Assembly (NCBI RefSeq): GCF_001570725.1
Contig: NZ_BCNV01000001.1
Location: 1,302,001-1,366,000 of the forward strand
Reading direction: 5' to 3'
Source: Paenibacillus amylolyticus
GTDB lineage: Bacteria > Bacillota > Bacilli > Paenibacillales > Paenibacillaceae
DNA: 64,000 nt
Part shown: positions 1,168-23,068 of the stretch, in pieces
How positions within the stretch are numbered: the first letter of the stretch is position 1
Layout: each line of letters opens with the position of its first letter
Translations under genes and position numbers: made by a program
The notes under the pieces: model-generated
Told to the model about the DNA's origin: nothing
Seen by the model: only the letters and a program-made list of their open reading frames with translations
The model's database searches: none

Positions 1168-1195
1168 TACGAAGTTCGTAGATATGATGTTAGCC
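1168..1195 (+). other. Left boundary of cassette array (candidate attI-like region)
   Basis: The first cassette begins at GTTAGCC (1189-1195). Its partner is GGCTAAC at 1652-1658, and the match extends to eight bases. No palindromic attC lies upstream of this GTT, as expected for an attI-side junction rather than another cassette. A 13-base palindrome TACGAAGTTCGTA (1168-1180) ends eight bases before the crossover G. This may be a binding element or chance. No integrase gene is present in the 1.2 kb visible upstream. Confidence 0.4.
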
Positions 1196-1232
1196 GAAAT
1201 TATTGCGATAGTAAAAAGAAAGAAGGATTGTT

Positions 1233-1622
1233 ATGGGGAAATATGGTGAAGCAGCAGTGAAAGCTGTCAATTATCTTAAAGAACATAAACATGGTGATCC
1301 AATTAAAGCATGGAATGAAGTGACAATAGAAATATTTGGTGAAGGTAGCTCTTCACAGAAAAAGGGATGCCCGAAAAACACTTTTTTAGGTCTATGCGAA
1401 GCAGGTCTACTTGAAAGCATTCCAAGAGGAGTTTACACAAATTCAAAAAAGAATAAAGCATACGGGCTAAAGGCAGTAAAAATATTAGGTGAGATTGATA
1501 AGGATAAGGATATACATCAAAAAGTATTATGGAAAGAAGTAATTGGAGATCAAAACGTTAAGTACAATTCACAAATGGATGTCATTCTAGGACTATGGAA
1601 AGAAGGGATGATCAGGCTTTGA
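1233..1622 (+). CDS. DUF6979-like conserved protein (cassette 1)
   Basis: A 129-residue soluble protein of unknown function. The N-terminus 'MGKYGEAAVKAV', the segment 'KKGCPKNTFLGLCEAGLL' and the following 'GVYTNSKKNK' match my recollection of the DUF6979 family, small stand-alone proteins of bacteria; this is recognition from memory, not a search. A GAAGG ribosome site lies about eight bases before the ATG. It is the only gene of cassette 1, starts 38 bases after the cassette border, and its stop lies 29 bases before the attC. No signal peptide or membrane segment is present. Confidence 0.75.
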   Translation: MGKYGEAAVKAVNYLKEHKHGDPIKAWNEVTIEIFGEGSSSQKKGCPKNTFLGLCEAGLLESIPRGVYTNSKKNKAYGLKAVKILGEIDKDKDIHQKVLWKEVIGDQNVKYNSQMDVILGLWKEGMIRL

Positions 1623-1651
1623 GTGGCTAACTCGAAGAAGACAATAACTCC

Positions 1652-1747
1652 GGCTAACATAATATTCACGCTGCGGACATTCGTCCTTGGTCTGGCAGTC
1701 GCCAGACACCCGACATACGTTGGGTCGTGAATACAGGAACGTTATGC
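1652..1747 (+). repeat. attC1 (96-nt class)
   Basis: R'' is GGCTAAC (1652-1658) and R' is GTTATGC (1741-1747). Inner arms ATTCACG and CGTGAAT pair, and two internal hairpins (CGGACATTCGTCC and CCCGACATACGTTGGG) fill the centre. R'' pairs with the start of cassette 1; R' belongs to cassette 2. Confidence 0.87.
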
Positions 1748-1792
1748 GTAATATCTGGAAAATGAAAATTATATTAGAAAGAGAGATACTTA

Positions 1793-2260
1793 ATGAATAT
1801 ATTTTCTATAGATATGCAGACAAGTAAATATGTCAATGTAGAACATCCTGTAATAACGATTGATGGAATTCCGTTTGATTTATATCTTCATAATTTGTAT
1901 CCAGATAATTTATATTTAGGTTTAATTCCGACAATTACTGATTGGATTGGACTGAAGGAAGAAGCAGAGTTAGTACTAAGACGTTTTCTTTCAGAAGAAG
2001 AGATTGTTATTTTACCAATATTAATGTGTCCGGATGATTGCGATTTAACATGTACACTAATTGTTGCTGAAGTTTTAAAATTAAATGATCAAGTGATTTG
2101 GAGACGGATTGGAGTGGATTCTAGTAATCTAGGAATACCATATAATTATGAGTTAGTCGGGAAAGAAGTTACCTGGTTAGATTTAGTGCCCAAAATGAAA
2201 TTTAGCAAGGATAAATATATTGAGAATCTTAAAACCATTTATAAACATAGTATCTCGTAG
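1793..2260 (+). CDS. Hypothetical protein (cassette 2)
   Basis: A 155-residue acidic soluble protein that I do not recognise. It is rich in hydrophobic beta-type stretches (for example 'IVILPILMCPDDCDLT' near the middle) and ends in a basic helix. The size and style are like immunity proteins or small hypothetical proteins common in cassette arrays, but no motif supports a function. An AGAGAG stretch precedes the ATG, so the start is moderately supported. It is the only gene between the attC sites on either side. Confidence 0.72.
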   Translation: MNIFSIDMQTSKYVNVEHPVITIDGIPFDLYLHNLYPDNLYLGLIPTITDWIGLKEEAELVLRRFLSEEEIVILPILMCPDDCDLTCTLIVAEVLKLNDQVIWRRIGVDSSNLGIPYNYELVGKEVTWLDLVPKMKFSKDKYIENLKTIYKHSIS

Positions 2261-2274
2261 AAGTCAGGTACTAC

Positions 2275-2468
2275 GCATAACATAATATTCACGCTTCGGG
2301 CCATTCGGCCCTCGGTCTGGCCGGAGTCAGAAGTGGATTCGATGATGCTATTCGCAGTAGGGGGGAAGTGAATTCAGCCAGACACATCCGCACCGACTAA
2401 CCGCATCCCGACCGATCCCGTTGGTCGCTTAAGTCGGTGGAACGTCGTGAATACAGGGAACGTTATCG
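2275..2468 (+). repeat. attC2 (long class, 194 nt)
   Basis: R'' GCATAAC (2275-2281) pairs with the start of cassette 2 over ten bases (GTTATGCGTA). R' is GTTATCG (2462-2468). Outer arms ATATTCACG/CGTGAATA are conserved. The centre is expanded and includes the ACACATCCGCACCGACTAACCG block also seen in attC9 and attC13. Confidence 0.85.
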
Positions 2469-2757: not shown

Positions 2758-2866
2758 CATAATATTCAAGCTGTGGCTCCGTTGGAGCCTTGGTCTGAGA
2801 GAAGGATTTCGAGGAGGTATTTCAGCAGACAACCCCTTGGGGTTCATGAATACAGGAACGTTATAT
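2752..2866 (+). repeat. attC3 (115-nt class)
   Basis: R'' CGATAAC (2752-2758) and R' GTTATAT (2860-2866). The centre contains GGCTCCGTTGGAGCC and ACCCCTTGGGGTT hairpins, a variant shared with attC14 and attC15. Confidence 0.83.
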
Positions 2867-7196: not shown

Positions 7197-7357
7197 TTAA
7201 GTCACTTGTCGTCCTGCTTTATTAGAAGAACAAAATAACAGTATAACAATCTATACCTTGGAACTAATATTTGCTAGATAACAGTATATATTGTGTAATG
7301 CATTGTGGAACAATGTATTGAAATTGTAAAAAATTAAAAATTAAAGGAAAAGAGAAT

Positions 7358-7390
7358 AAAAACGCCGATTTCTCGATCGGCGTTTTTGGT
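7358..7390 (+). terminator. Strong intrinsic terminator
   Basis: AAAAACGCCGAT (7358-7369) and ATCGGCGTTTTT (7376-7387) form a perfect 12-bp stem with a six-base loop and T run. It can work on either strand. The 260 bases after it up to attC4 hold no convincing gene, only purine-rich sequence like cassette 3. Confidence 0.85.
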
Positions 7391-8466: not shown

Positions 8467-8511
8467 GAAATTGGCGAAGAGCTTTAAAAATCTTTAAAGT
8501 TGGTGATCTCG

Positions 8512-8841
8512 ATGAAGGAACCAGTGATTATTGAGCCGTACAGCGATAATTGGCCAAGTCACTATAATGAATTAAGAGCCCAGATCATAACGGAAATTGG
8601 CTCTGATGTATATAAAATTGATCATATTGGATCGACGGCAGTAGCGGGCTTAGCAGCTAAGCCCATTATTGATATTCAGATATCTGTGAGGGATTTAAAA
8701 AAAATAGAGACAATGATATCGGGACTTGCATCTTTAGGACATCATTATCGTTCAGATAATGATGATTTAACTAAGAGATATTTCAGAGCTCATTTACAAT
8801 TCAATTCAATCATAAAGAAAAACACCTTGCTGAAAAATTAG
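8512..8841 (+). pseudogene. Truncated GrpB-family protein (cassette 6)
   Basis: The 5' half of a GrpB-type nucleotidyltransferase-fold protein. 'IIEPYSDNWPSHYNELRAQI' and 'IDHIGSTAVAGLAAKPIIDIQI' are the family's N-terminal motifs, but the protein stops after about 109 residues, whereas the full-length relative at 19728 in the same array has 180. The segment after 'YFRAHLQF' does not match GrpB; it changes into another coding remnant. I chose the ATG at 8512 over the GTG at 8500 because the protein then starts at the family's usual N-terminus. Probably non-functional. Confidence 0.65.
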
Positions 8842-9277: not shown

Positions 9278-9940
9278 GTGGAATATAAAAAATATCAAGT
9301 TGATGTAGATAGCATTAAGGTAGAACCCGATACTGAAGGTTGCAAAGTTAGATCTTTGTTACAATTAAGCTTGAATAAGATTTCGAATAGTAAAAATGTA
9401 ACTATAATTATGATGAATCCTTCAAAAGCAAATCAGAAATCCTCTGATCAAACAATCAATAGAATCATTGATTTTTTCTATAATGAGCAAACATTAAATG
9501 TGAAAAATATAAAAGTTGTTAATCTATTCTCTTTTTATAATCCAAAGTCAATTACATTACATGAAAATGTGAACTTATCAGAAGAAAAATTAAGTCTTTT
9601 AGTACAAAATAATCAAAACGTAATTGGATTATCGATCAAAGAGAGTGACTATGTTTTTTTAGGATGGGGAAACAGTCCTGAAGGATTTTACGAAACTGCT
9701 TTTTATTCTCAAGTGATTTATGTGTTGGCAGAAATCAAGCGTTATAAAGAGAAGAAAACTTTTGTATTTAAGATTGATAATAAAAGGGCTAACTCTCAAG
9801 AGACCTTGACTAAATCTAAAAACCCTGTCCATCCAATTAATGGACCGATACTAGACAAGGTAGAAGTGAAAATTGATTCTTTGTATAGAATATTACCAAC
9901 AGATAATAAAGAGATTTTAGATGGAATTCATGAACTATAG
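9278..9940 (+). CDS. DUF1643 family protein (cassette 7)
   Basis: A 220-residue DUF1643 protein of unknown function. Family hallmarks are 'IIMMNPSKANQKSSDQT' near residue 45, 'KVVNLFSFYNPKS' near residue 85 and a late 'KNPVHPINGPI'. Such genes often sit in mobile or defence-rich regions. The GTG start is set by a strong AAGGGGG site at 9264-9270. The TAG stop (9938-9940) overlaps the first bases of the R'' of attC7. Confidence 0.8.
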   Translation: MEYKKYQVDVDSIKVEPDTEGCKVRSLLQLSLNKISNSKNVTIIMMNPSKANQKSSDQTINRIIDFFYNEQTLNVKNIKVVNLFSFYNPKSITLHENVNLSEEKLSLLVQNNQNVIGLSIKESDYVFLGWGNSPEGFYETAFYSQVIYVLAEIKRYKEKKTFVFKIDNKRANSQETLTKSKNPVHPINGPILDKVEVKIDSLYRILPTDNKEILDGIHEL

Positions 9941-10061: not shown

Positions 10062-11067
10062 ATGATGGAAGAAAGAGAAGTTAAAGAATATGTAATAGAA
10101 GATCTTGTAGAAAATGGAGTAGAAGAAGAAACTTCAAAGAAAGGGAACATTACAGAGTTTCTAAATAGAATAGAAGATGGGATTATAGAGGCTAAGTCTC
10201 AAATTAAGAAGACGACAAAAGATAAGAAAGCATATTTTGGATTGTCAATTGCTTTTGCTGCTCCAATAGCTGCAAAATATTTTGGTCAATTTAATCTTAA
10301 TAATACTACACCTTGTTGGAAAAGGTAAAGCTTCTATATTTACTGGCTTTTGCAATTACCATGATCAAAATATATTTCAGCCAATTGAAGAAAATGAATA
10401 TAGACTAAATGATTTAAAACAAAATTACTTGTTTGCTTATCGAGCATTTGCTTTAGCGTACTATGAACGGCATAGTACATTTGGCTTTATGAAAGAACAC
10501 TTTCAAATCAAGAAACAGCGTGGAGATAATACAGAAGAAATTGAACAAAAAATTCAGTTTTACGAAAAACATTTGAATTTCATAGAGAATTTAAGAAATA
10601 GTATGAACAGCAACTTAGATAATAAGCGATTTGAAAGAATCAGTACAGAAGTTTTAGTTTGGCCACGTAATTATGGAGTAGCAGCTACTTCTATGTTTTT
10701 TGTAGATAAGGATGTGCAAGGGAAGGTGATAAATAATCCTTTGTATTATATTTCTCCATTCTTTTTTACTATTATACCTACGGAAAGCAATACAGTTGTT
10801 TTAATGAGTTACCTTACAAAGGATAAAAATAGATACAAATTTTTAAAAGATCAAATTGTAAAAGCACCGTTGGATCAACAAAAGGTTTTGATCTCTAATA
10901 TTCTTGCGATGAACGTAGAGAACTTTTTTATTTCACCAAAACAATGGAATAAAACTCTTATTGAGATTCGACAACTTTATACTGAGATTTTGAAAAATAC
11001 TATGGGAAAAGAGAAGCCTGGAATAGGCCATTTTAAAAAATTAAATATATTTCTAGATATTGATTGA
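10062..11067 (+). pseudogene. Frameshifted hypothetical protein (cassette 8)
   Basis: Two overlapping frames form what looks like one gene of about 330 residues. Frame one starts at ATG 10062 after AGGAG and runs to 10328, with a charged N-terminus and a short hydrophobic stretch 'GLSIAFAAPIAAKYF'. Frame two takes over near 10310 ('LVGKGKASIFTGF') and continues to 11067. It has no ribosome site of its own, so a one-base indel around 10305-10312 is the simplest reading. No slippery heptamer is visible to suggest programmed frameshifting. Family unknown. Alternative readings are two overlapping genes or a sequencing error. Confidence 0.55.
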
Positions 11068-11202: not shown

Positions 11203-11751
11203 TCAAAGCTTTTCTTCAAAAATGTCTTTATCATAAAGAAAAGATTTATCTATTACTCTTTTAAATCCTTGAATGTCATTCAAAGTTGGTTTATTTGATA
11301 CTATTACTTTATCCTCAATTGTTACACGATGAATGTATAATTTAATTTTATATTGAGATCCAACAGGAGGGTTAATAGGGGCCATAGAATCTGTTACGAC
11401 TTCAGAATCTATCAGTACATAATGAATTGAGCGTTTTTTAATTAGACTCAAGACACTGTATACTCCAGGTACTGAGGCGAAAGCTAGAACAAAATAAACT
11501 AAGAAAAGAGCTACATAAAACTCTATTTGTTCATCACCAGCTGCAAGTGAAGTGAAATATAGTGCGATTATTGCGGTAATTATTGATGCAAAGAAAGACT
11601 GAATCAAGAATATTACTATGTTCTTTTGATCATTCATTAGCAATCTTTCGATTTTTGTTGTTCTTGCCAGAGCAACTATTCTAATAATTAGAACGATAGC
11701 TCCAATTAATGATGGCACACTTAAATAAGGCAAGAATTCTTTAATTTCCAA
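11203..11751 (-). CDS. Membrane protein in inverted orientation (cassette 9)
   Basis: A 182-residue protein with one hydrophobic segment near the N-terminus ('SVPSLIGAIVLIIRIVAL') and two more in the middle ('IQSFFASIITAIIALYF', 'VALFLVYFVLAFASV'), then a soluble C-terminal half of about 80 residues. Function unknown. The start is a TTG at 11751 on the minus strand, placed by AGGAGG seven bases before it; the upstream ATG in frame lacks such a site. It is the only gene of the array pointing against the cassette direction, so it must have its own promoter in the roughly 70 bases before attC9. In other arrays inverted cargo is often a toxin-antitoxin unit, but no second gene is seen here. Confidence 0.75.
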   Translation of the reverse strand: MEIKEFLPYLSVPSLIGAIVLIIRIVALARTTKIERLLMNDQKNIVIFLIQSFFASIITAIIALYFTSLAAGDEQIEFYVALFLVYFVLAFASVPGVYSVLSLIKKRSIHYVLIDSEVVTDSMAPINPPVGSQYKIKLYIHRVTIEDKVIVSNKPTLNDIQGFKRVIDKSFLYDKDIFEEKL

Positions 11752-11825
11752 TTTATCTCCTCCTAAATTTAATATGATTAAATATATCAAACATTAGGAA
11801 GAATATTCAAGATGGCTTTAACTTC

Positions 11826-11984: not shown

Positions 11985-12015
11985 GAAATTCTTGCAAATA
12001 AAAGGAGAAATAATA

Positions 12016-12915
12016 ATGCCTAGTATATTTCTTAGTCATACAAGTATTGACAAGCCATTTGTAGAAAAACTCGCAAGAGATTTAAAAAGAATAGGTGTTA
12101 ATGTTTGGTTTGATAAGTGGGAAATAAAAATCGGTGATTCTATTACATGGAAAATTGAAGAGGGAATTAGAGAAAACGAATTTCTAGGGATAGTATTATC
12201 ACCAGAAGCGCTAAATTCAGAGTGGGTTAAGAGTGAGCTAGGGGCTGCATGGGTAAAGCAAATGCAAACCAAAAAAGTTTTTGTTTTGCCGATTTTTTAT
12301 AGAGAATGTCAGATACCATATTTTTTATCAGATCGCAGATTTGCAGATTTTAGAAGTGATTATGAAAGTGGTTTTAGTGAATTAGCTACTATATTTGGCA
12401 TTGAAGAAACAGAAGCAATAACACAAGATAATTGGAGAAAGTTTGTCAAAAACAAGAAAGTTAATTGGAAAAAATATAAAATTAAAGAATTTGAACAATT
12501 AGTAACAACATTAGTTGATAGAGCGTATGATTACAAGTGGTCTGCTTGGGTTGGTGGTACTGCCAATGAATACTCCATAACTTTTTATTGCTCTATTAAA
12601 AAGGAGAATGCGTATTTAAGCAAATCTATCTCAATTAAGTTAGTTGGAGAAAGTAATGCTTATATGGCAAGTTTTAAGAATGAATCAAATCCTAATAACA
12701 TTAAAGTAAGTGATTTCGATACATACATTGGCAACTCGGTTGACGCATGTGATGAGTACGTATGGAGATTTATAGATGACATTAATTCGGAAAATGGTAC
12801 TCCAACCGGTAAGCCATACTATCATACTGAACGATTTTCAAGAGGTAATGAAATCCATGAAGCAGCAAAAGAGATCATTAATAAGTTTAATTGGTACAAA
12901 GGAGATAAGTTGTAA
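12016..12915 (+). CDS. TIR-domain protein (cassette 10)
   Basis: A 299-residue protein with an N-terminal TIR domain (residues 1-130): 'MPSIFLSHTSIDK' start, 'VWFDKWEIKIGDS' BB-loop region, and 'SPEALNSEWVKSELGAAW' holding Glu74, which aligns by motif with the NADase glutamate of SARM1-type TIRs (WVxxE). The C-terminal half (140-299) is an unrecognised soluble domain. Bacterial TIR proteins usually cleave NAD+ or make cyclic ADP-ribose signals, often in abortive-infection defence; activity here is inferred from motifs. AAAGGAG (12001-12007) fixes the ATG at 12016. It is alone in its cassette, so any trigger must be built in or supplied from elsewhere. Confidence 0.85.
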   Translation: MPSIFLSHTSIDKPFVEKLARDLKRIGVNVWFDKWEIKIGDSITWKIEEGIRENEFLGIVLSPEALNSEWVKSELGAAWVKQMQTKKVFVLPIFYRECQIPYFLSDRRFADFRSDYESGFSELATIFGIEETEAITQDNWRKFVKNKKVNWKKYKIKEFEQLVTTLVDRAYDYKWSAWVGGTANEYSITFYCSIKKENAYLSKSISIKLVGESNAYMASFKNESNPNNIKVSDFDTYIGNSVDACDEYVWRFIDDINSENGTPTGKPYYHTERFSRGNEIHEAAKEIINKFNWYKGDKL

Positions 12916-13125: not shown

Positions 13126-13569
13126 ATGAAAACAAATAAGGCGATGAGAAATTTATTGAATGAGCTTGCTCAATCAAACGAATCGATCAGTTCGAATTTA
13201 TTTAACCCTACTTTTCATGAATGGGACAATTGCATTGTAATTGATGCTTCAAGTTTAAGAGAGACAGATTCTATTGAAGAAACCATTTATCAAGATCGGA
13301 CGGATTTAGAAGCCTCAATTAATCATTACCATATAGAGGATTTAAGGACTGGACTAAAACTCATTTCGAATTGGAAAGAGAATATAAAGTTGAATTACTC
13401 TGAAAAAGAATTTATTTTAATTTTAAGTTTTACAATTGAAGGAGAAGATGTGGTCATTAGATTCTATCAATTTAGACATGATGAACCTGAATGGATTAAA
13501 TTAAATGACCTTGAAGGTTATAAAGAAGAAGCTATATTAGTAATTGAGATTTTGAATGCAGTTCAATGA
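13126..13569 (+). CDS. Hypothetical protein (cassette 11)
   Basis: A 147-residue acidic soluble protein beginning 'MKTNKAMRNLLNELAQSNE', not recognised. It has alternating charged helices and a beta-rich centre ('FILILSFTIEGEDVVIRF'). Its shape is similar to that of the broken gene of cassette 12 (both have a helical N-terminus, a YxF/VxF beta centre and an acidic tail), but I cannot show homology. The ribosome site is weak (AGCAGG nine bases upstream). It is the only gene in the cassette. Confidence 0.7.
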   Translation: MKTNKAMRNLLNELAQSNESISSNLFNPTFHEWDNCIVIDASSLRETDSIEETIYQDRTDLEASINHYHIEDLRTGLKLISNWKENIKLNYSEKEFILILSFTIEGEDVVIRFYQFRHDEPEWIKLNDLEGYKEEAILVIEILNAVQ

Positions 13570-13582: not shown

Positions 13583-13705
13583 GTATAACATAATATTCAA
13601 GCAGCGGCTCTTAACAGAGCCTTGGTCTGCTGGATGAATTTCGTGGGAGCGTTTCAGCAGACACATCCGACTAAGTTGGACATCGTGAATACAGGAAAGT
13701 TATAC
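13583..13705 (+). repeat. attC11 (123 nt)
   Basis: R'' GTATAAC (13583-13589) pairs with GTTATACGAA at the start of cassette 11 over ten bases. R' is GTTATAC (13699-13705). The distal inner sequence reads ACAGGAAAG in place of the usual ACAGGAACG. Confidence 0.85.
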
Positions 13706-13723
13706 GACAATTCGGGAAAGTTG

Positions 13724-14316
13724 GTGAAGAACCATTTATCAGATATTTTAAAAAGAGTTTCAAAATGCGATATTTGAAGATGACGTTTATCTTCGTCCAG
13801 TCATCACAAAAGAGACGGGTGAAGACTTAATCGTTGAGTTCCATGTTTTTTTATATTTTACCGATTTAATCATTCAAAAATGGGAAGTTGAATTTAAACA
13901 AGTTAGAGAATATAAAATTACTTTAGATTTTATTGAAGATATAGAACTCGAGACTAATCATCCATTATTACTCGAATATCTTGAACCAACGAATGAATTA
14001 TATTTCAAAGGGGTATCAAATGAAGTTTTTAAAGTCATTGGAGAACTATTAATTGAACATCAAAAAGTGACAGACAAATGGATTGAATTTCAACATTTTA
14101 TGAATGGATCACTTGAATGGCTCTTAAACCAACAACAGGGACTTCTTGCCAAAGGACCTGAGACAATTATTAAAACATACTAAGGAAGTGTTAGAAAGGA
14201 ATCATCTTAATCCAAACATTATAAAGCTCGAATCAGATCATGAAGAATTAAAAGTAGCAATATTAGGAAAGTCATTTGTGATATGTAAGGAATTGGGATT
14301 CGAGAGAATTTTGTAG
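13724..14316 (+). pseudogene. Doubly frameshifted hypothetical gene (cassette 12)
   Basis: One gene of about 195 codons is spread over three frames. It starts at GTG 13724 ('KNHLSDILKRV'), shifts near 13762 into 'FQNAIFEDDVYLRPVITKE', which continues to '...LLNQQQGLLAKG', and shifts again near 14160 into 'LRQLLKHTKEVLERNHLNPN', which ends '...GFERIL' at TAG 14314-14316. Each part reads as sensible protein, so two indels in an intact ancestor are the simplest account. Family unknown. The cassette ends are perfectly preserved although the cargo is dead. Confidence 0.6.
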
Positions 14317-14341
14317 TGTAATCGTGGAAGTCCGAATTGTC

Positions 14342-14501
14342 GTATAACAACATATTCACGAATTGGGTCATTCGCCCCTTGGTCTGACCGGAGATTTAGC
14401 AGGAAGCGCATGCAGTCAGACAACCCTGCAAGCCTAAGTCTTCGACCCACTCCCTATGGTCGTTTAAGGCTCTCGGGGTCGTGAATACAAGAATGTTATC
14501 T
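14342..14501 (+). repeat. attC12 (160-nt class)
   Basis: R'' GTATAAC (14342-14348) with its upstream bases pairs with the start of cassette 12 over seventeen bases, the longest partner match in the array. R' is GTTATCT (14495-14501). Confidence 0.88.
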
Positions 14502-15490: not shown

Positions 15491-16135
15491 ATGCTGGAAG
15501 CGGTTATTTTCGATATGGATGGCACACTATTTCAAACAAACAAAATCTTAGAGTTATCGTTAGAAGAAACATTTTCTGTCTTGAGGTCTCGTAATGAATG
15601 GTCGAGTGAAACTCCAACTCAAAAATATCGTGAAATTATGGGAGTTCCTCTACCAGTAGTTTGGGAAACGTTACTACCGAACCATTCAAACGAAATCAGA
15701 CGAATTGTAGACGAAATCTTCTTGGAGAAGTTAATTGCAAATATTAATTATGGCAACGGTGCACTTTATCCGCATGTTAAAGAAGTTTTTGATTTTTTAA
15801 AACAGGAAGGCTGCTTAATTTTTATTGCAAGTAATGGATTAATCGAATACCTCAATGCTATCGTCAACTGTTACAAGTTAAATAATTGGGTGACAGAAAC
15901 CTTTAGCATCCAACAAATAGAGACTCAGAATAAGAATGACTTAGTTAGATATATTCTTATGAAATATCACATCAACAATGCTGCTGTAGTTGGCGACAGG
16001 ATCTCTGATATCAATGCAGCAAAAAACAATGGATTGAATGCTTTCGGTTGTCGATTTGACTTTGCCCAAGAATGGGAACTTAAACAAGCGGATTATATTA
16101 TTGATGATTTACTTGAATTGAAAAAATATATTTAA
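15491..16135 (+). CDS. HAD-superfamily hydrolase (cassette 14)
   Basis: A 214-residue haloacid-dehalogenase-fold phosphatase. Motif I is 'VIFDMDGTLF' (nucleophile Asp8, acid/base Asp10), motif II is 'LIFIASNG', and motif IV is 'AVVGDRISDINAAKNNG'. A helical cap between motifs I and II makes it a beta-phosphoglucomutase or phosphoglycolate-phosphatase type. The substrate cannot be inferred. AGGAG is well placed before the ATG. All motifs are intact, so it is probably active. Single gene in its cassette. Confidence 0.88.
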   Translation: MLEAVIFDMDGTLFQTNKILELSLEETFSVLRSRNEWSSETPTQKYREIMGVPLPVVWETLLPNHSNEIRRIVDEIFLEKLIANINYGNGALYPHVKEVFDFLKQEGCLIFIASNGLIEYLNAIVNCYKLNNWVTETFSIQQIETQNKNDLVRYILMKYHINNAAVVGDRISDINAAKNNGLNAFGCRFDFAQEWELKQADYIIDDLLELKKYI

Positions 16136-16301: not shown

Positions 16302-16345
16302 CATAAGAGCTTTAAAACATAATGACACTTTTTGGAGGTTAATTG

Positions 16346-16750
16346 ATGGGAGCATGGGGAACTGGAATTTTCGAGAATGATGATGTATTAGATTGGAAGG
16401 CAGATTTACTTGATTCTGATGACATCGAATTAATTGAAGAGACGATTGAAGAAGTATTAGAAGAAGAATATATTGAGTCAGATTTAGCTTCCAATGCTTT
16501 AGGCGCAATTGAGATCCTTGTAGCATTACAAGGTAATCCTGGGAAAGAAATATTGAATAAACAAAGTAATACGGAGGATCTATATGACTGGATCGATAAA
16601 CATAAAGGTAAAGGAAAAAAACTCATTTCAAAAGCTAAACGAGCAGTTAAGAAAATTAAGAAAGATTCAGAACTAAAAGAGCTATGGGAAGAATCAGAAG
16701 AATACCCAATCTGGTTAAATACAATAAATGACTTAGAAAATCGATTGTAA
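16346..16750 (+). CDS. DUF4259 family protein (cassette 15)
   Basis: A 134-residue acidic protein with the DUF4259 signature 'MGAWGTGIFENDDVLDW' at its N-terminus, followed by an Asp/Glu-rich helical stretch and 'ASNALGAIEILVALQGNPG'. Family function is unknown; members occur as stand-alone small proteins in many bacteria and in toxin-immunity settings. GGAGG (16334-16338) fixes the ATG at 16346 and not the TTG just before it. Intact and alone in its cassette. Confidence 0.85.
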   Translation: MGAWGTGIFENDDVLDWKADLLDSDDIELIEETIEEVLEEEYIESDLASNALGAIEILVALQGNPGKEILNKQSNTEDLYDWIDKHKGKGKKLISKAKRAVKKIKKDSELKELWEESEEYPIWLNTINDLENRL

Positions 16751-16913: not shown

Positions 16914-17462
16914 ATGTATAAGTTAATAACTTTATTGATTTTAGTAGTTCTGTTGGGCTGTTCGGATAATACGCGAAGGAGCTCCGAACAAAATGATGCA
17001 ATAAATGATAGTACTTTGAAGGAGGAACTTAATGAAATGTATACCTATAAAGCTATTACTGAAGAAGATGAAACATTAGAATCCTCAAAATTTCTGGATA
17101 CAGGCATTATTGCGGGTGAAGAAAGTGCGAAGTTTAGAGGATCGCTTCTTACTTTGTTTGGTGAACCGTTATATAAGTCAGATAATGCTGAAGATGCGTA
17201 CTATTATTTAATTGAAGTAAGCGATGATATGAGTAAGTGGTACTATACTGTTTATGAAGGTCCTTCAGGACCTGCTATTGGTTATGATGAAAAGGAAAAC
17301 CAAGCAAACGCAAGGGAAGCCTCCAAAGCTTTGCTAGAGAAAATTAAAGAAACCACACCTTCTGATTTTAATGAAGTCATATATTACGAAGACTTTGACT
17401 CGAAAATTACATATGGATGTAAGAGTGGAGAATGTTTTTATAATGAAAAAGAAGGTCGTTAG
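16914..17462 (+). CDS. Predicted lipoprotein (cassette 16)
   Basis: A 182-residue secreted lipoprotein. A basic start and hydrophobic core are followed by the lipobox 'LLGC' with Cys17, then a Ser/Asn-rich linker and a compact domain containing 'LLTLFGEPLYKSDNAEDAYY' and two cysteines near the C-terminus ('YGCKSGECF') that could form a disulfide. Function unknown. GAAAGG lies seven bases before the ATG. The upstream attC has lost its right end, so this cassette cannot be cut cleanly on its left side. Confidence 0.78.
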   Translation: MYKLITLLILVVLLGCSDNTRRSSEQNDAINDSTLKEELNEMYTYKAITEEDETLESSKFLDTGIIAGEESAKFRGSLLTLFGEPLYKSDNAEDAYYYLIEVSDDMSKWYYTVYEGPSGPAIGYDEKENQANAREASKALLEKIKETTPSDFNEVIYYEDFDSKITYGCKSGECFYNEKEGR

Positions 17463-17652: not shown

Positions 17653-18261
17653 ATGAGTAGATTGTTACTAACCTCTTGTGGTTTTTATACTGAAGATATT
17701 AAAAATCAATTTCTGGAGTTTATTGATGGAGATATTTCTAAATTAAAAGTCTCAATTATTACAACAGCATCCCCTTCAAAAGAAACGAATAGATATGCAC
17801 AAAGAGCATTGCAAGAGTTTAAGGACATGGGATTTCAGCATATCAATTTTGTAGATATTGAATTTGATGATCCGCAAATTCTCTTACATAGAGATGTTAT
17901 ATATATCAATGGTGGAAATCCATTTACATTATTGTATTATGCTAAGAAAAGTGGTGCTGATGAAATTATCAGAACACTGGCCGCACAGAATGTGATTATC
18001 GTTGGAGTAAGTGCAGGAACGTTATTACTGGGGCCGAATATTAATATTGTCGATTTCTTTACTCCACAGATGAATACAATGAATTTAACGGATTTTAAGG
18101 CATTAGGTGTAACCGACAAGCTTATTTTTCCCCACTATGATCGAGAGGACATATTTAAAGATAGTACTAATAAAACAATTGAAGAGAGAATAGTAGAATT
18201 TGAATGCAATGAGAACTGTAAGGTGACAAGGCTTAAAGATGATGAATATATCTCAATCTAA
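17653..18261 (+). CDS. Peptidase S51 (dipeptidase E-like) family protein (cassette 17)
   Basis: A 202-residue class I glutamine-amidotransferase-fold protein of peptidase family S51. The nucleophile elbow is 'IVGVSAGTLLLG' (Ser in GxSAG), preceded by 'VIYINGGNPFTLLYY' and followed by 'FPHYDRED', the usual family pattern with a conserved histidine. Dipeptidase E-type enzymes cut Asp-X dipeptides, and other members degrade cyanophycin or act on antibiotic peptides such as microcin C; the substrate here is unknown. A GGCGGGG site lies before the ATG. Intact. Confidence 0.84.
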   Translation: MSRLLLTSCGFYTEDIKNQFLEFIDGDISKLKVSIITTASPSKETNRYAQRALQEFKDMGFQHINFVDIEFDDPQILLHRDVIYINGGNPFTLLYYAKKSGADEIIRTLAAQNVIIVGVSAGTLLLGPNINIVDFFTPQMNTMNLTDFKALGVTDKLIFPHYDREDIFKDSTNKTIEERIVEFECNENCKVTRLKDDEYISI

Positions 18262-18418: not shown

Positions 18419-18464
18419 GAAAGGCAAGCGATAATACTCTTAATTTTCTGTGAGGAGGAATAGT

Positions 18465-18989
18465 ATGTTTTTTTTACAAATGTCCGGATTCCCAGGATCA
18501 GGAAAATCAAGTTTGGCAAAACAAATATCTAAATTAACGAATGCAGTTATAGTTGATCATGATATCTCTAAAACGGCTCTGTTAGAGGCATTAGACAATC
18601 AAAATCTAAGTATGAATGTCTTAGGTAAAACGTCATATCATATTGATTGGGCATTAATTGAGTTTTATTTAAGTCAAGGGAATAGTGTGATTTTTGATGT
18701 CCCTTGTTTATATGAAAAAATGATAGAGATCGGTGAGCAACTGTGTTTAAAGTATAAGATTAAATACAAATATGTAGAATGTTGCGTGGATAATTACGAG
18801 TTGATTCAGCAACGATTATTAACAAGAGAAAGAAAAATTAGTCAGATAGAGAGCACAACATATGAAGCATTTAAACATGGCATACAACAGAGTAAAAAAT
18901 CTGAAAAATATGAATACTTTATTGTCGACAGTTCTGAACCAATTGAAACATATTTAAATAAAGTAATAGATTACATCAAACTAAAGTGA
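18465..18989 (+). CDS. P-loop kinase-like AAA protein (cassette 18)
   Basis: A 174-residue nucleotide-binding protein of the zeta-toxin/CPT-like small kinase type. Walker A is 'GFPGSGKSSLAKQI', followed by 'VDHDISKTALLEAL', where the Asp may be catalytic, and a 'VIFDVPC' strand. Likely a phosphotransferase for a small molecule or drug; the substrate is unknown. The start at ATG 18465 is set by AGGAGGAA (18453-18460); the GTG overlapping that site is excluded. Related but distinct kinase-like cassettes occur at 22338, and chromosomal ones at 26421, 32750 and 38297. Confidence 0.83.
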   Translation: MFFLQMSGFPGSGKSSLAKQISKLTNAVIVDHDISKTALLEALDNQNLSMNVLGKTSYHIDWALIEFYLSQGNSVIFDVPCLYEKMIEIGEQLCLKYKIKYKYVECCVDNYELIQQRLLTRERKISQIESTTYEAFKHGIQQSKKSEKYEYFIVDSSEPIETYLNKVIDYIKLK

Positions 18990-19149: not shown

Positions 19150-19653
19150 ATGATTCGAAATACAGTACGAGCATTGATTATCCAGAATGACAATCTTCTA
19201 TTAATAAAGAAAAGAAGAGCAAATATAGGTATTTATTATGTACTGCCTGGAGGAGCTCAAGAAGAGAACGAAACATTGGAACAGGCTTTAAGTCGCGAGT
19301 GTATGGAAGAGTTGGGTATTGAAATATCGAGTAGTGGGTTAGTTTGTGTAAGGGAATACATATCGCGCAATCATGAATACTCTTTCATAATGAAGGAAGT
19401 TCATTCGATTGATTTTATTTATGAGTGCAGCACTCATTTCCTAAATAATGAATTAAGAAGCCTACAATCTGATATTGGACAGGTTGGGATTGAATGGTTA
19501 CCCATTAATGAAATTAAGAGGACAGTGTATAGGCTAGAAGAATCTTTAGAACATTATAAATTTCCTAGAACAACTAATGAGTTCTTTAAAGAATATTTTT
19601 CGGATCAAGTAATAAAACCATATTCTAGCGTAATATTTGAAAGTAATCCATAG
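19150..19653 (+). CDS. Nudix hydrolase (cassette 19)
   Basis: A 167-residue Nudix protein. The Nudix box 'GGAQEENETLEQALSREC' continues to MEELGIE, matching GX5EX7REUXEEXGU, so the Mg-binding glutamates are all present. It starts with a beta strand 'RNTVRALIIQNDNLLLIKKR' typical of MutT-like enzymes. It probably hydrolyses a nucleoside diphosphate derivative; specificity is unknown. GGAGGGAG lies upstream of the ATG. Nudix genes are frequent integron cargo. Confidence 0.9.
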   Translation: MIRNTVRALIIQNDNLLLIKKRRANIGIYYVLPGGAQEENETLEQALSRECMEELGIEISSSGLVCVREYISRNHEYSFIMKEVHSIDFIYECSTHFLNNELRSLQSDIGQVGIEWLPINEIKRTVYRLEESLEHYKFPRTTNEFFKEYFSDQVIKPYSSVIFESNP

Positions 19654-20686: not shown

Positions 20687-20780
20687 GACTAATATGATAT
20701 CCGTGCTTCGCAACCTAAAGGCTCATTGACCGTTCCCTACGGTAAGCTGCTTGAACGTCAGGAATACAACAACGTTAGCC
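20687..20780 (+). repeat. attC21 (degenerate left end)
   Basis: The left end reads GACTAAT in place of a xxxxAAC box, followed by ATGATATCCGTGCTTCG, which resembles attC9. The right end ACAACAACGTTAGCC is intact, with R' GTTAGCC (20774-20780). Confidence 0.65.
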
Positions 20781-20806
20781 AAGTTAATAGTTTAGGAGGA
20801 GTCTAT

Positions 20807-21574
20807 ATGATATTAGAAAAAGTTATAAATAGAATTGCAATACAAAGTGAATATATGGATTTGGTTGATAAGTATATAGAGCATATACTTAACGAATTTA
20901 AAGGTAAGATTCATAGCATTTATATGTGTGGCTCGATTCCAAAAGGAACAGCTCAACCTTTTAAGTCAGATGCAGACTTTACTATTGTATGTGCAAATCC
21001 CGAAGATATTGATTACGAAAGATTGTCAATGATTAAAGACAGGCTTTTGGAAGAATATCCATTCGTCACTAAGGTGGATACGATCATTTGCTCGATTGAT
21101 GATGTATTAAGTAGACCGAATGATTGGGGTTTTTGGATTAAGATCATTTGTGTTTGCATACATGGGGAGGACATTGGTGAAAAAGTACCCGCGATTATAA
21201 TTTCTCCAGAATTCATTTTAGACTTAAATACAGATACCAAGGAGGAAGTAGATCGTGTACATCGTTCACTTTCTAATGTTAGTGATCACTCAATGAAAAC
21301 TAGATATATTAAAGGGTACTCTAAGAGATTAATTCGTGCATTATACTCTTTGGTATTAGAAGATTCAGGGGTATGGGAAGATGAAATCATTAAGATGAAG
21401 AATGCCATATTAAACTATTGCGATATTGACTCCGCTTTAGTTGAGTATCTGTATGCTTGTTACTTGGATAGCGATGTATCTGTTGAAGAGTTTCTGGAAA
21501 TCGCAGATGAAGTATATAGCTATTTTGAGAACGCCTTAAATACAATGGCTGCTTCCAGAAATTTATTTGGCTAA
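20807..21574 (+). CDS. Nucleotidyltransferase-domain protein (cassette 22)
   Basis: A 255-residue protein with an N-terminal Pol-beta-like nucleotidyltransferase domain: 'IYMCGSIPKGTAQPFKSDAD' gives the GS...D(x)D core. A helical C-terminal domain follows, as in aminoglycoside adenylyltransferase-like proteins. Transfer of AMP to a small molecule or drug is plausible but unproven. TAGGAGGAG (20792-20801 region) fixes the ATG at 20807. The TAA stop (21572-21574) lies within R'' of attC22. Confidence 0.84.
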   Translation: MILEKVINRIAIQSEYMDLVDKYIEHILNEFKGKIHSIYMCGSIPKGTAQPFKSDADFTIVCANPEDIDYERLSMIKDRLLEEYPFVTKVDTIICSIDDVLSRPNDWGFWIKIICVCIHGEDIGEKVPAIIISPEFILDLNTDTKEEVDRVHRSLSNVSDHSMKTRYIKGYSKRLIRALYSLVLEDSGVWEDEIIKMKNAILNYCDIDSALVEYLYACYLDSDVSVEEFLEIADEVYSYFENALNTMAASRNLFG

Positions 21575-21666
21575 CAATATATTAACGATCGTAAACACCT
21601 TGAGAAGCGAGTGACCACATCCAGCCCCTAATCCCGTCAGGACATCGCCAATACAAATCGTTATCT
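21569..21666 (+). repeat. attC22 (98 nt)
   Basis: R'' GGCTAAC (21569-21575) pairs with GTTAGCCAA at the cassette 22 start over nine bases. R' is GTTATCT (21660-21666). Centre diverged from the main family. Confidence 0.8.
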
Positions 21667-21694
21667 GAAACTGGCAAGATTGAAAGGAGAAAAT

Positions 21695-22159
21695 ATGATA
21701 CTTGGGTTGTATGAAGCACATTTACCAGTGAGTAACTTACATCAATCAATTGAATTTTATTCTAAATTAGGATTAGAGCTGGCCTGGAGAGATGAAGATA
21801 CAGCGTTCTTCTGGATTGAAAAAGAAAAGAGTTGGGTCGGTCTATGGCAAGGTGAAGAGTATCTCACTTCTTATCATCCATCATTAAGGCATATAGCATT
21901 TCGAGTTAGTTATGAAGATCTTAGAGACAGTGTGAAATGGCTTCAAACTGTTGAAGTAGAGCCTGTCCCATTTGGAAAAAGAGATTCAATAAATCCATTT
22001 GTAAGGCCTAATCAGGGAAATGCTTCAGTCTACTTCAATGATCCAGATGGAAATAGTCTAGAATTAATGTGTTTTGTAAGTGTCCCTAAAAACTTGAAGA
22101 ATATATCCAATAAATTATCAATTGAAGAATGGGAAGATCTTTTGAAAGATAAAAACTAA
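21695..22159 (+). CDS. VOC (glyoxalase/bleomycin-resistance-like) protein (cassette 23)
   Basis: A 154-residue vicinal-oxygen-chelate protein with two beta-alpha-beta-beta-beta repeats. It begins 'LGLYEAHLPVSNLHQSIEFY' with the first metal-ligand histidine and ends with 'NASVYFNDPDGNSLELMC' containing the typical DPDGN-ExM motif. It resembles fosfomycin thiol transferases and glyoxalase-like proteins; the substrate is unknown. AAAGGAG upstream selects the ATG at 21695 over the ATG at 21680. Confidence 0.87.
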   Translation: MILGLYEAHLPVSNLHQSIEFYSKLGLELAWRDEDTAFFWIEKEKSWVGLWQGEEYLTSYHPSLRHIAFRVSYEDLRDSVKWLQTVEVEPVPFGKRDSINPFVRPNQGNASVYFNDPDGNSLELMCFVSVPKNLKNISNKLSIEEWEDLLKDKN

Positions 22160-22196
22160 AGAATGTATTGGGGTATTTAAAAGAAGTATCAGCATC

Positions 22197-22308
22197 AGAT
22201 AACATAATATTTACGCTGCGGCTCCTTCGGAGTCTTGGTCTGCCGTATGAAAGCGCTCCATCAGGTGTGTTCAACTACGTTGAACGTATGAATACAGAAA
22301 CGTTAGGC
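22197..22308 (+). repeat. attC23 (112 nt)
   Basis: R'' AGATAAC (22197-22203) pairs with GTTATCTGA of the cassette 23 start. R' is GTTAGGC (22302-22308). A GGCTCCTTCGGAGTC hairpin lies in the centre. Confidence 0.84.
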
Positions 22309-22337
22309 GAAATAATTGCTAGTGGAAGGAGATTTAA

Positions 22338-22970
22338 ATGCATATTAGAGGAGTAATTCTTGAGGGGTACTCAAATGCAGGGAAGACTTCAGTATTAAAA
22401 GCAATTAAACGATATCAATCACAAGAAGAATCCTCAGAACGGAGCGTAGTTATCCTTGGAGAACATTATTCTCAAATTTTAAATAATAAACATGGAGAAT
22501 ATGTGAGTCTAACGCGAGAAGAACACATTGAGTTACTTAAAGAGAGAGTTGAAATGCTCAAGAAACTTAACGATTGGGCAATTCAACTTGGTCCTGCATC
22601 TAGAGGAACTAGGGGACTATTTTATGTTCTGGAGAGGTTTCACTTAAATCATAGAGCTGCATTTGTAGATTCGGATTTGGAAGAGATAATTAAAATAGAA
22701 GAACAGCTTGAGTCTTTAAACGCCAAGTGTATTTTGCTTACAATCTCTCCTGAAGTTGTAGAAGAAAGAATTAAAAGTAGACAACCCGAAGAATGGATCT
22801 ATAAAACAGAAGAAGATGTAAGATCGTCGGTAAGTGAATTATTAAAAAGCCAAAATGTTTTAAGACATCAAGCTAAAACCTCAAGAGTGCCAACAGTAGA
22901 AATCAATACAGATGGTAAGGATTGGGATGAGTATGTAAGGGTAATCATGGAGGGCAACGACATCGCCTAA
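22338..22970 (+). CDS. P-loop kinase-like protein (cassette 24)
   Basis: A 210-residue P-loop protein. The Walker A variant is 'GVILEGYSNAGKTSVLKAIK', followed by a thymidylate-kinase-like body with 'FYVLERFHLNHRA' and a lid-type 'EERIKSRQPEEW' segment. Likely a nucleotide or small-molecule kinase; the substrate is unknown. GGAAGGAG upstream supports the ATG. The stop TAA (22968-22970) falls inside R'' GCCTAAC of attC24. Its own cassette border GTTAGGC is 35 bases upstream. Confidence 0.82.
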   Translation: MHIRGVILEGYSNAGKTSVLKAIKRYQSQEESSERSVVILGEHYSQILNNKHGEYVSLTREEHIELLKERVEMLKKLNDWAIQLGPASRGTRGLFYVLERFHLNHRAAFVDSDLEEIIKIEEQLESLNAKCILLTISPEVVEERIKSRQPEEWIYKTEEDVRSSVSELLKSQNVLRHQAKTSRVPTVEINTDGKDWDEYVRVIMEGNDIA

Positions 22971-23068
22971 CCAGATGTTCAAGCATCGTCGCTATTGCTA
23001 CTTGGTCGGGTAGAAACTATAAGCAGAAGAATGTATCCAGCCAGACGTATCAGATCAAAACAACAAGC
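22965..23068 (+). repeat. attC24 (decayed last site)
   Basis: R'' GCCTAAC (22965-22971), the only site fitting the classical RYYYAAC consensus exactly, pairs with GTTAGGCGA. The rest keeps fragments such as TTCAAGCATCG and CCAGCCAGACG but no right GTT box. This is the last recognisable site. Confidence 0.65.

What the first reader, a model, noticed from the sequence alone, without database searches (positions are those of the whole stretch)
1189..23068. Integron-type cassette array (about 24 attC-like sites) in a Paenibacillus-like chromosome, no integrase
Seen directly: the left box of each palindrome (xxxxAAC) is complementary to the start (GTTxxxx) of the unit before it, with unit-specific matches of 6 to 17 bases. 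This is the exact linear form expected of integron cassettes. Known: integrons are mainly described in Proteobacteria and some other phyla, and reports in Bacillota are rare. Inference: a Gram-positive integron or a CALIN fed by an integrase elsewhere.
Basis: partly seen in the sequence, partly recalled or inferred. Interest (0 to 1): 0.95.

Follow-up and report, generated by a model that had tools for sequence, protein, structure and literature searches.

The report
Hidden integron class in Paenibacillus bacteria
Chromosomes of Paenibacillus and related bacteria carry arrays of small gene units bounded by foldable DNA sites, two of the three in this genome beside a recombinase gene that likely captures and shuffles them, so a phylum in which integrons were reported as extremely rare appears to have its own, unusual kind.

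Summary
The window (C1:1302001-1366000 of a 6.76 Mb Paenibacillus genome) has 24 same-strand attC-like sites at 1653-23068: 19 with both arms, 5 degraded. Complementarity between a unit's two ends is unit-specific (148 matches; 96.6±5.4 in 20,000 re-pairings, maximum 118). The sites fold as cloverleaves with strong covariation. No integrase is in the window, but of 16 tyrosine-recombinase domain matches in the genome the two best are intact genes (371, 389 aa), each followed by an attI-like segment and an array; all 41 model hits lie in these two arrays and the window. Sites occur in 73/75 genomes of the genus, 152/245 (16/19 genera) of the family, 5/398 of a phylum sample. Window cassettes recur elsewhere in new places, the shared DNA starting at GTT. 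So it most likely works as an integron. It is not a standard one: 19/19 tested integrases lack the ~41-residue insert found in 16/16 IntI, carry an extra, possibly HARP-like N-terminal domain, and read towards the cassettes; the sites have a 4/7-nt central loop and a conserved 2-nt mismatch. Verdict: new variant of a known kind. No recombination was shown experimentally.

The parts
1129..1191 (+). attI-like left end of the array (TTATATGTAGTTCGGATATT...GTGTTTACGAAGTTCGTAGATATGATGTT); related to the segment behind both integrase genes; cut predicted in GTT 1189-1191
   Evidence: like copies behind integrases and at the matching place in L051, L054, L055, L058, L061, L062
1653..1743 (+). attC-like site 1
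   Evidence: 107.5 bits
2276..2464 (+). attC-like site 2 (long variable part)
   Evidence: 54.5 bits
2753..2862 (+). attC-like site 3
   Evidence: 83.1 bits
7660..7750 (+). attC-like site 4
   Evidence: 103.9 bits
8372..8462 (+). attC-like site 5
   Evidence: 109.8 bits
9147..9237 (+). attC-like site 6
   Evidence: 106.9 bits
9940..10031 (+). attC-like site 7
   Evidence: 102.4 bits
11105..11194 (+). attC-like site 8
   Evidence: 94.6 bits
11827..11980 (+). attC-like site 9 (long)
   Evidence: 45.7 bits
12942..13096 (+). attC-like site 10 (long)
   Evidence: 51.4 bits
13584..13701 (+). attC-like site 11
   Evidence: 77.8 bits
14343..14497 (+). attC-like site 12 (long)
   Evidence: 52 bits
15266..15428 (+). 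attC-like site 13 (long)
   Evidence: 49.1 bits
16191..16297 (+). attC-like site 14
   Evidence: 61.9 bits
16786..16894 (+). attC-like site 15, right arm lost
   Evidence: 43.8 bits
17498..17580 (+). attC-like site 16
   Evidence: 76.4 bits
18301..18414 (+). attC-like site 17
   Evidence: 73.2 bits
19015..19105 (+). attC-like site 18 (TTT in place of GTT)
   Evidence: 74.1 bits
19669..19748 (+). attC-like site 19, truncated
   Evidence: 19 bits
20296..20321 (+). attC-like site 20, only the outer arms left
   Evidence: sequence
20688..20776 (+). attC-like site 21, degenerate
   Evidence: 17.5 bits
21570..21662 (+). attC-like site 22, diverged; not found by the model
22198..22304 (+). attC-like site 23
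   Evidence: 61.4 bits
22966..23068 (+). attC-like site 24, right arm lost; its end is approximate
1233..1622 (+). cassette 1 gene, DUF6979
1793..2260 (+). cassette 2 gene, unknown; same gene stands first behind attI in L042
3409..7071 (+). cassette gene, Schlafen AlbA_2 protein with a weak STAND NTPase match, 1220 aa
7816..8376 (+). cassette gene, unknown
8500..8841 (+). cassette gene, GrpB fragment
9278..9940 (+). cassette gene, DUF1643
10282..11067 (+). cassette gene, unknown (with ORF 10062-10328)
11203..11790 (-). cassette gene, unknown; the only ORF over 100 aa on the - strand in the array
11992..12915 (+). cassette gene, TIR domain protein
13126..13569 (+). cassette gene, not scanned
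13699..14494 (+). cassette 12 (whole unit); its homologue stands directly behind attI in L051
14534..15253 (+). cassette gene, ferritin-like (below cut-off)
15491..16135 (+). cassette gene, HAD hydrolase
16343..16750 (+). cassette gene, DUF4259
16914..17462 (+). cassette gene, not scanned
17653..18261 (+). cassette gene, peptidase S51
18450..18989 (+). cassette gene, AAA_33 kinase-like
19150..19653 (+). cassette 19 gene, NUDIX; the cassette stands directly behind attI in L058
19710..20270 (+). cassette gene, GrpB
20726..21574 (+). cassette gene, nucleotidyltransferase domain
21680..22159 (+). cassette gene, glyoxalase/VOC
22338..22970 (+). last cassette gene, nucleotide kinase-like (below cut-off)

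Best explanation
The window holds an integrase-less cassette array of an integron-type system, whose units are predicted to be cut out as circles and inserted next to attI by one of the two recombinases encoded 0.84 and 0.88 Mb away on the same contig. Likely mechanism: a cassette end site folds as a single strand (probably the bottom strand) into a cloverleaf whose foot is made of the two ends of the same cassette; a tyrosine recombinase bound to the folded site joins it at G/TT to the double-stranded attI site, placing the newest cassette first; older cassettes move away and their sites decay. The recombinase is not of the IntI clade: it lacks the IntI insert that handles an extrahelical base and has an N-terminal, possibly HARP-like domain, which I infer could hold or anneal the single-stranded substrate instead. 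Shown: sites, structure conservation, unit-specific ends, linkage to integrase and attI, natural re-arrangements whose shared DNA begins at GTT. Inferred: catalysis, strand choice, role of the N-terminal domain, use of the window array by the distant integrases.
For: Linkage: of 16 Phage_integrase matches in the genome the two best are intact genes (C1:426832-427947 and 463709-464878), followed by attI-like DNA and arrays; all 41 model hits at E<=1 (150 of 1561 first-look candidates were scored) are on one strand in these two arrays and the window. In 15 of 16 Paenibacillus loci found by the integrase alone, sites follow it (110 sites, all on its strand, 109 downstream, 1 upstream); the 16th ends with the contig. 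In 17 loci of six other genera, sites follow the integrase in 16, 145 of 147 on its strand; the 17th ends with the contig. Structure: 19 of 22 pairs change on both sides, 424 cells against 130±15 shuffled. Ends. Movement: at the matching place of other genomes, attI is followed at GTT by window cassette 12 (L051, same species) or 19 (L058); cassette 12 is also inside L054, cassette 19 inside L042 and L047, cassette 1 inside L034 and L042, and cassette 2's gene is first behind an integrase-linked attI in L042; every one of these matches begins at base 1 or 2 of the unit. Of 22 homologous cassette pairs, 16 have a different left and 13 a different right neighbour; in the 16, identity is 88-100% from GTT rightwards and as low as 31% (position -4) and 62% (-1) left of it. 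Core mismatches grow with distance from attI in 22 of 29 loci (p=0.0035). Circle-form sites: bottom strand more stable in 153, top in 50 of 205. 195 of 213 units have their longest ORF on the array's strand.
Against: No excision, circle or insertion was observed; all is comparative. The integrase fails the IntI-insert criterion, and that insert is described as essential for integron function (PMC8138268, passage). 21 of 75 genomes of the genus have sites but no integrase match at E<=1e-50, and many integrase matches contain stops or are partial. In three of the recurring copies (cassette 1 in L034 and L042, cassette 2 in L042) the shared DNA ends at or before the left arm of the site, so gene and site body do not always travel together. 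In the 13 pairs with different right neighbours the site just before GTT is itself only 46-100% identical, and 8 of 13 differ in site length; their shared site content (median 0.43) barely exceeds the 95th percentile of random pairs (0.42; median 0.09). A second strand test (A.C versus G.T mispairs) is inconclusive: 86 to 51, but 28 A.C fall in one pair. HARP-likeness is weak.
Confidence: 0.87

Rival explanations
1. Classical IntI-type integron (or CALIN) acquired by horizontal transfer from Gram-negative bacteria.
For: Same layout (cassettes, attC, attI); the integrase's best PDB sequence match is the integron integrase IntI4, 2a3v.
Against: Distance from the GKG motif to HxLRH is 66 residues in 18 and 67 in one of 19 integrases of this family, and 107 in 16 of 16 IntI; IntI form their own clade, 100/100; no TIGR02249 match over its cut-off in the genome; GTTRRRY in only 54 of 213 units; sites present in 16 of 19 sampled genera of the family.
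Confidence: 0.04
2. The sites are RNA elements (terminators or stability hairpins) or a dispersed repeat between genes, not recombination sites.
For: Covariation would also arise from RNA folding; sites lie between genes on one strand.
Against: RNA function does not predict complementarity of the far start and end of the same unit, linkage to one recombinase family, an attI, or shared DNA that begins at GTT. No Rfam family matches the sites.
Confidence: 0.04
3. Cassettes move by double-stranded Xer-type recombination (pdif-like modules, recalled) or by general homologous recombination between repeats.
For: The integrase is Xer/XerA-like (NF040815 over its cut-off for one copy); repeats could recombine by RecA; gene and site body are sometimes separated at the site's left arm, as recombination inside the conserved core would do.
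Against: Variable hairpins kept by compensatory change and the extended stem made by a cassette's own two ends are not needed for double-stranded sites; attI shares only a short core with attC, yet is a junction.
Confidence: 0.1
4. The window array is a dead relic: the system worked once, but this array is no longer served.
For: No integrase within it; 5 of 24 sites decayed.
Against: Sites 1-8 next to attI score 54-110 bits, seven of them over 83, the same-species genome G001 has a different cassette behind attI there, and intact integrases exist in the genome. Compatible with the main reading apart from present activity.
Confidence: 0.25

Closest known systems
Integrons with IntI integrases (sedentary chromosomal integrons and CALINs)
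   Same: Mostly one-gene, same-strand units with a foldable site at the end; attI beside a tyrosine recombinase; cassette-specific R''/R' complementarity; junction at GTT; folding energy favours the bottom strand; decay away from attI.
   Different: No IntI insert; extra N-terminal domain; integrase reads towards the array (in classical integrons it usually reads away, recalled); R box is GTTAnnnGA with a 9 bp + 2-nt mismatch + about 5 bp foot; inner stem without extrahelical base; 4/7-nt central loop; three-armed variable part. Extrahelical bases and the I2 helix as IntI contacts: PMC3053210, passages read.
XerA / archaeal Xer recombinases (NF040815, PDB 4a8e, 5hxy)
   Same: Catalytic domain fold and sequence.
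   Different: Xer proteins resolve chromosome dimers (PMC8138268, passage); here the enzyme sits at the head of cassette arrays and has an extra domain.
OTH-22-1 structured DNA motif (PMC8632094)
   Same: Described as a likely novel attC form with RYYYAAC and 1887 representatives in several phyla (passage read).
   Different: RYYYAAC fits only 54 of 213 units here; the word Paenibacillus does not occur in that paper's main text; whether the two overlap was not tested.
SMARCAL1 HARP domain (PF07443, PDB 4o66)
   Same: Weak profile and fold similarity of integrase residues 26-112.
   Different: HARP is known from SNF2-type annealing helicases (recalled); here it would be fused to a tyrosine recombinase.

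Membership tests
Integron (IntI type) | Array of gene cassettes each ended by an attC site | tested here: met
Integron (IntI type) | attC body foldable, with base pairs kept by covariation | tested here: met
Integron (IntI type) | R'' of a cassette complementary to the R' at its own start | tested here: met
Integron (IntI type) | R box consensus GTTRRRY / RYYYAAC | tested here: not met
   54 of 213 units fit either half; 180 of 213 fit GTTAnnnGA
Integron (IntI type) | Two extrahelical bases on one side of the L stem | tested here: not met
   No bulge conserved in the inner stem; instead a central loop of 4 (264 of 268 measured) against 7 nt (241 of 254 measured; 308 sites tried)
Integron (IntI type) | attI site beside the integrase gene | tested here: met
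   behind both own integrases and, by eye, in 13 of the 16 loci; similar cores printed for 14 of 15 loci tried in other genera, by a loose pattern
Integron (IntI type) | Integrase with the IntI-specific insert (patch III / I2 helix) | tested here: not met
   66-67 against 107 residues; gap in the 2a3v alignment
Integron (IntI type) | Integrase inside the IntI clade | tested here: not met
   16 IntI rows are one clade, 100/100, without the 19 rows of this family; bootstrap not fully settled, few and long outgroups
Integron (IntI type) | Junctions at G/TT in natural re-arrangements | tested here: met
   left ends; right ends are less sharp
Integron (IntI type) | Preference for the folded bottom strand | tested here: inconclusive
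   Folding energy favours bottom in 153, top in 50 of 205; mispair test undecided; no assay
Integron (IntI type) | Promoter (Pc) driving the first cassettes | not tested
   -
Integron (IntI type) | Integrase catalyses attI x attC recombination | not testable with these tools
   needs an assay
XerA (NF040815) | Score over the family cut-off of 220 bits | tested here: inconclusive
   225.8 for one copy, 215.2 for the other
HARP domain | Pfam HARP over its cut-off, or clear fold match | tested here: inconclusive
   14.8 bits (cut-off 25); 36 of 87 relatives match at E<=1, best 2.8e-5; Foldseek rank 1 is 4o66 but E 0.23, prob 0.69, no match at E<=0.001

The most novel reading that the evidence does not exclude
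Paenibacillaceae own a separate class of integron, built on an Xer-like integrase in which a HARP-type annealing domain does the work that the IntI insert does elsewhere, with its own attC code (outer-stem mismatch and 4/7 central loop); cassette recombination through folded single strands thus has at least two molecular solutions, and most of a large Gram-positive family carries one of them unnoticed.
Probability: 0.6. Interest if true: 0.95.

Novelty: new variant of a known kind. Interest (0 to 1): 0.92.

Why it matters
Integrons are described as extremely rare in Firmicutes: IntegronFinder 2.0 reports one complete integron there (Limnochorda pilosa) and a few CALIN (PMC9024848, passages read). 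Here one family shows sites in 152 of 245 sampled genomes. If the integrase works, it gives (a) a second, natural solution to recombining folded single-stranded sites, which can separate what is essential (fold, G/TT, asymmetry) from what is IntI-specific (insert, extrahelical bases); (b) a gene-capture engine native to a Gram-positive family, with cassettes such as TIR, Schlafen AlbA_2, NUDIX and kinase-like genes; (c) a reason to re-scan other phyla with searches that do not start from IntI.

Tried and rejected
Classical IntI origin: rejected by the missing insert and by the tree. Known RNA family: in window 1-24000 only two hits up to E 1, both at 7313-7392 and far below their cut-offs; none at L026:3300-5200. 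SOS control: a script looked for GAACN4GTTC and two looser forms in 400 bp before 11 integrase genes; nine had none, two had one match of unprinted form about 400 bp upstream; no conclusion. Bottom-strand test by A.C/G.T mispairs: undecided, 58 to 51 once the one dominating pair is set aside. Viral contigs: no exact match to GTGAATACAGGAACGTTAT. Phylum sample of 398: beyond the genus one weak hit only (G361, 45 bits); only a few genomes of that sample are of the same family. HARP: no proof; the full-length model's structure lists show only recombinases and their relatives, the domain alone gives 4o66 at rank 1 with E 0.23, unrelated proteins at ranks 2-4 and XPB domains at ranks 6, 9 and 11.

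Literature: ten searches pairing integron, attC, CALIN or cassettes with Paenibacillus, Paenibacillaceae, Bacillales, Firmicutes, Bacillota, Gram-positive or tyrosine recombinase listed no report of this system. I saw listings and abstract beginnings for all and passages of seven papers, none whole. PMC11089894 screened 5,565 plant-associated genomes, Bacillales among them, and found integrons in 864; its main text does not hold the words Paenibacillus or Firmicutes. In one search (40 of 43 listed) most 'attC' hits look like misprints of ATCC, judged from titles. No preprints or most subscription journals were covered, and IntegronFinder could not be run, so some of the 'few CALIN' in Firmicutes may be these sites.

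Caps and dropped rows: genome-wide model counts rest on the best first-look candidates only (150, 53 a genome, 16, 10), so hits per genome are lower bounds; 14 of 131 sites lacked AAC or GTT at the expected place; 308 sites gave 213 units with both ends; 8 of 213 units with sites over 170 nt left out; spacers measured in 254 and 268 of 308 sites. L045 left out of A5. Of the 19 integrases, two are from this genome and 17 are homologues picked by hand from the 120 listed; several of those have no named host and one is named as a Clostridia MAG, and their own arrays were not checked. The 16 IntI are two plasmid genes and 14 picked from 120 listed. One search's 30 genomes were picked mainly for their site hits; 17 of its 24 matches were fetched.

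Full report
OBSERVATION. The left core AACATAATATTCACG occurs 25 times in the window against 3.5±2.0 in shuffles, the right core GTGAATACAGGAACGTT 17 times against 0.17±0.43. Reading the sequence gives 24 sites, all on the + strand, 1653-23068; 19 have both arms, five are degraded. The start of a unit is complementary to its end: 148 matches over 21 scorable units against 96.6±5.4 after re-pairing, maximum 118 of 20,000 (one unit was scored out of register, which works against the result). Ends of the same site pair less well (4.4 against 7.0 of 10). With 97 units from 18 other loci (two arrays of this genome and loci of other Paenibacillus), positions 1-6 after GTT match in 87-99%, position 7 in 34%, position 8 in 2%, positions 9-13 in 76-89%. 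After re-pairing, the variable positions 2-4 and 9-13 match in 27-56%; positions 1, 5 and 6 (80-99%) and the mismatch at 7-8 (25%, 2%) are conserved sequence and so do not depend on pairing. The foot of the folded site is thus 9 bp, a conserved 2-base mismatch, then about 5 bp specific to the cassette.

SITE ANATOMY. The consensus fold has a TATTCA(CG)/(CG)TGAATA inner stem and three hairpin arms. On 110 sites from other Paenibacillus loci, 19 of 22 pairs show changes on both sides, 424 such cells against 130±15 shuffled, 93.5% of cells paired against 34-44% with partners slid (this alignment was fitted to the model, so it leans towards the structure). Between AAC and the inner stem are 4 nt in 264 of 268 measured sites; between the stem and GTT 7 nt in 241 of 254: a fixed 3-nt asymmetry. 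Built in circular form (own end + body + own start), the bottom strand folds better in 153 and the top in 50 of 205 sites (means -28.6 and -27.2 kcal/mol), and circular form beats the linear junction by 6.3 kcal/mol on the bottom strand (the sites are related, so the p-value is not taken at face value).

THE INTEGRASE. The window is G000:C1:1302001-1366000. Of 16 Phage_integrase matches in the genome the two best, C1:426832-427947 (371 aa) and C1:463709-464878 (389 aa), are intact. Each is followed by a conserved segment ending ...GGTATTTACGAAGTnCATAAATTAGATGTTA, and the window array begins with a relative of it. All 41 hits of the site model in the genome, all on the + strand, fall in three clusters: 9 and 13 behind the two integrases and 19 in the window. 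NCBIfam places the protein near XerA (225.8 and 215.2 bits, cut-off 220) and below the integron-integrase cut-off (209 and 199 against 265). The best solved-structure match by sequence is IntI4, 2a3v, but with a hole: GKG to HxLRH is 66 residues in 18 and 67 in one of 19 integrases of this family (two from this genome, 17 homologues) and 107 in 16 of 16 IntI. IntI rows form one clade (100/100), apart from this family (bootstrap not fully settled, long branches among the outgroups). About 110 residues precede the recombinase part; most of them are confidently modelled as a small alpha/beta domain. HARP is suggested by Pfam in 36 of 87 relatives at E<=1, best 2.8e-5 (14.8 bits against a cut-off of 25 for the own protein), by a PDB profile search (4o66, E 1.6, second of two hits) and by Foldseek (4o66 first, E 0.23; XPB domains at ranks 6, 9 and 11 among unrelated proteins). 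Each line is weak; together I call it possibly HARP-like.

LINKAGE AND SPREAD. The integrase alone fetched 16 loci from named Paenibacillus records; the site model then found 110 sites in 15 of them, all on the integrase's strand, 109 downstream and 1 upstream; the 16th locus ends with its contig. The attI segment is seen behind the integrase in 13 of the 16 (by eye). The site model hits 73 of 75 genomes of the genus at E<=1e-3; the integrase search hits 52 of 75 at E<=1e-50, many of the matches with stops or partial; the two genomes without sites also lack the integrase, and 21 have sites without it. In the family 152 of 245 genomes in 16 of 19 genera have sites; in the phylum sample 5 of 398, four of them in the genus and one weak hit elsewhere. 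From 30 family genomes that I picked mainly for their hits, 23 have the integrase at E<=1e-45; I fetched 17 of these loci, from six other genera: sites follow the integrase in 16, with 145 of 147 sites on its strand; the 17th ends with its contig. A loosely attI-like core, in some cases GAAGTTCGTGAATAAGAC|GTTA, was printed for 14 of 15 loci tried.

MOVEMENT. At the place of the window array in other genomes the flank is the same but cassettes differ. In the same-species genome G001 (L051) attI is followed by window cassette 12, in L058 by cassette 19, each joined at GTT. In L053 cassette 1 stands behind attI as it does in the window, but at 97% identity where the flanking gene is at 77%, which suggests exchange. 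Cassette 12 also lies inside L054, cassette 19 inside L042 and L047, cassette 1 inside L034 and L042; cassette 2's gene (506 of 721 bases, 98%) is first behind an integrase-linked attI in L042. All these matches begin at base 1 or 2 of the unit. Those of cassettes 12 and 19 and of cassette 1 in L053 run through the site; those of cassette 1 in L034 and L042 and of cassette 2 in L042 stop at or before the site's left arm, so gene and site body can come apart. In L058 the base before TT is G, as in attI, while the window copy of that cassette has T there, which fits a cut between G and TT (one case). Among 213 units, 22 homologous pairs were found: 16 with a different left neighbour (6 the same) and 13 with a different right one (6 the same). 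In the first group identity is 88-100% from GTT rightwards; left of GTT it falls to 62% (position -1) and 31% (-4), other positions being conserved core. In the second it falls to 54, 31 and 31% at the three variable bases after GTTA, but the site before GTT is also only 46-100% identical and 8 of 13 differ in length, so the right boundary is less sharp. Core mismatches grow with distance from attI in 22 of 29 loci, median rho 0.35, p=0.0035. The longest ORF is on the array's strand in 195 of 213 units, opposite in 11, absent in 7, and where present fills a median 85% of the unit.

MECHANISM. Most likely the integrase binds a folded single-stranded attC, cuts next to GTT and joins it to attI. 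Shown by sequence: sites, folds, own-end complementarity, attI, linkage, breakpoints. Inferred: catalysis, bottom-strand use, the roles of the mismatch, the 4/7 loop and the N-terminal domain, and service of the window array by integrases at 0.84-0.88 Mb. In IntI the insert's I2 helix contacts an extrahelical base (PMC3053210, passages) and the insert is called essential for integron function (PMC8138268, passage); an enzyme without it needs another way to hold the substrate, and the added domain is the obvious candidate.

AGAINST. There is no experiment. A second strand test was undecided. Many genomes keep sites without a detectable intact integrase, as in a decaying or shared system. Window units 8, 15 and 17 pair poorly. 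Some recurring cassettes carry another site body. The phylogeny is shallow in outgroups. IntegronFinder was not available, so how many sites are already recorded as CALIN is unknown.

NOVELTY. Ten paper searches (listed under Tried and rejected) showed no report of this system in the open-licence library. IntegronFinder 2.0 names one complete integron in Firmicutes and a few CALIN; a review lists Firmicutes among integron-bearing phyla without detail in the passage seen (PMC8618304). The closest hint is the OTH-22-1 attC-like motif. I rate it a new variant of a known kind: it works like an integron but fails tested defining features of the IntI type, the insert, the clade and the classical attC boxes and bulges.

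Noticed in passing
L026:3630-3710, L025:1740-1833 and six more loci (alignment A6): A ~70-nt leader just before the integrase gene, TTCCGAAAGCATCGGAAGG..TCTGATTCCCTA..GGGATGAAGA..CCTTCCTTTTT, strongly conserved in the 8 loci aligned, looks like a hairpin plus terminator; possibly a transcription-attenuation switch for the integrase. No Rfam match.
   Followed up: partly
L048:7923-16963 (Chryseobacterium plasmid NZ_CP041688.1): A 41%-identical integrase, matched from query residue 50 on and so including part of the N-terminal domain, is followed by four 282-nt repeats 2.1-3.1 kb apart with one to three genes between: perhaps an analogous array in Bacteroidota with quite different repeats.
   Followed up: partly
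window 23751-23813: A stretch of about 63 bp beyond the array is 73% identical to the DNA upstream of the attI-like end (window 1074-1135; E 2e-5): a possible relic of a second attI.
   Followed up: partly
window 3409-7071: Very large cassette (unit of 4.8 kb) with a 1220-aa Schlafen AlbA_2 protein, and a TIR-domain cassette at 11992-12915: possible defence genes carried as cassettes; PADLOC was not run.
   Followed up: no
Acinetobacter plasmids, e.g. NZ_CP104735.1 (hit H14): Recombinases 45-46% identical to the integrase over residues 166-387 or less occur on Acinetobacter plasmids; context not examined.
   Followed up: no
L098:3844-3938 and 4178-4272: The two sites on the strand opposite to the integrase among 147 in other genera: perhaps an inverted piece of array.
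   Followed up: no
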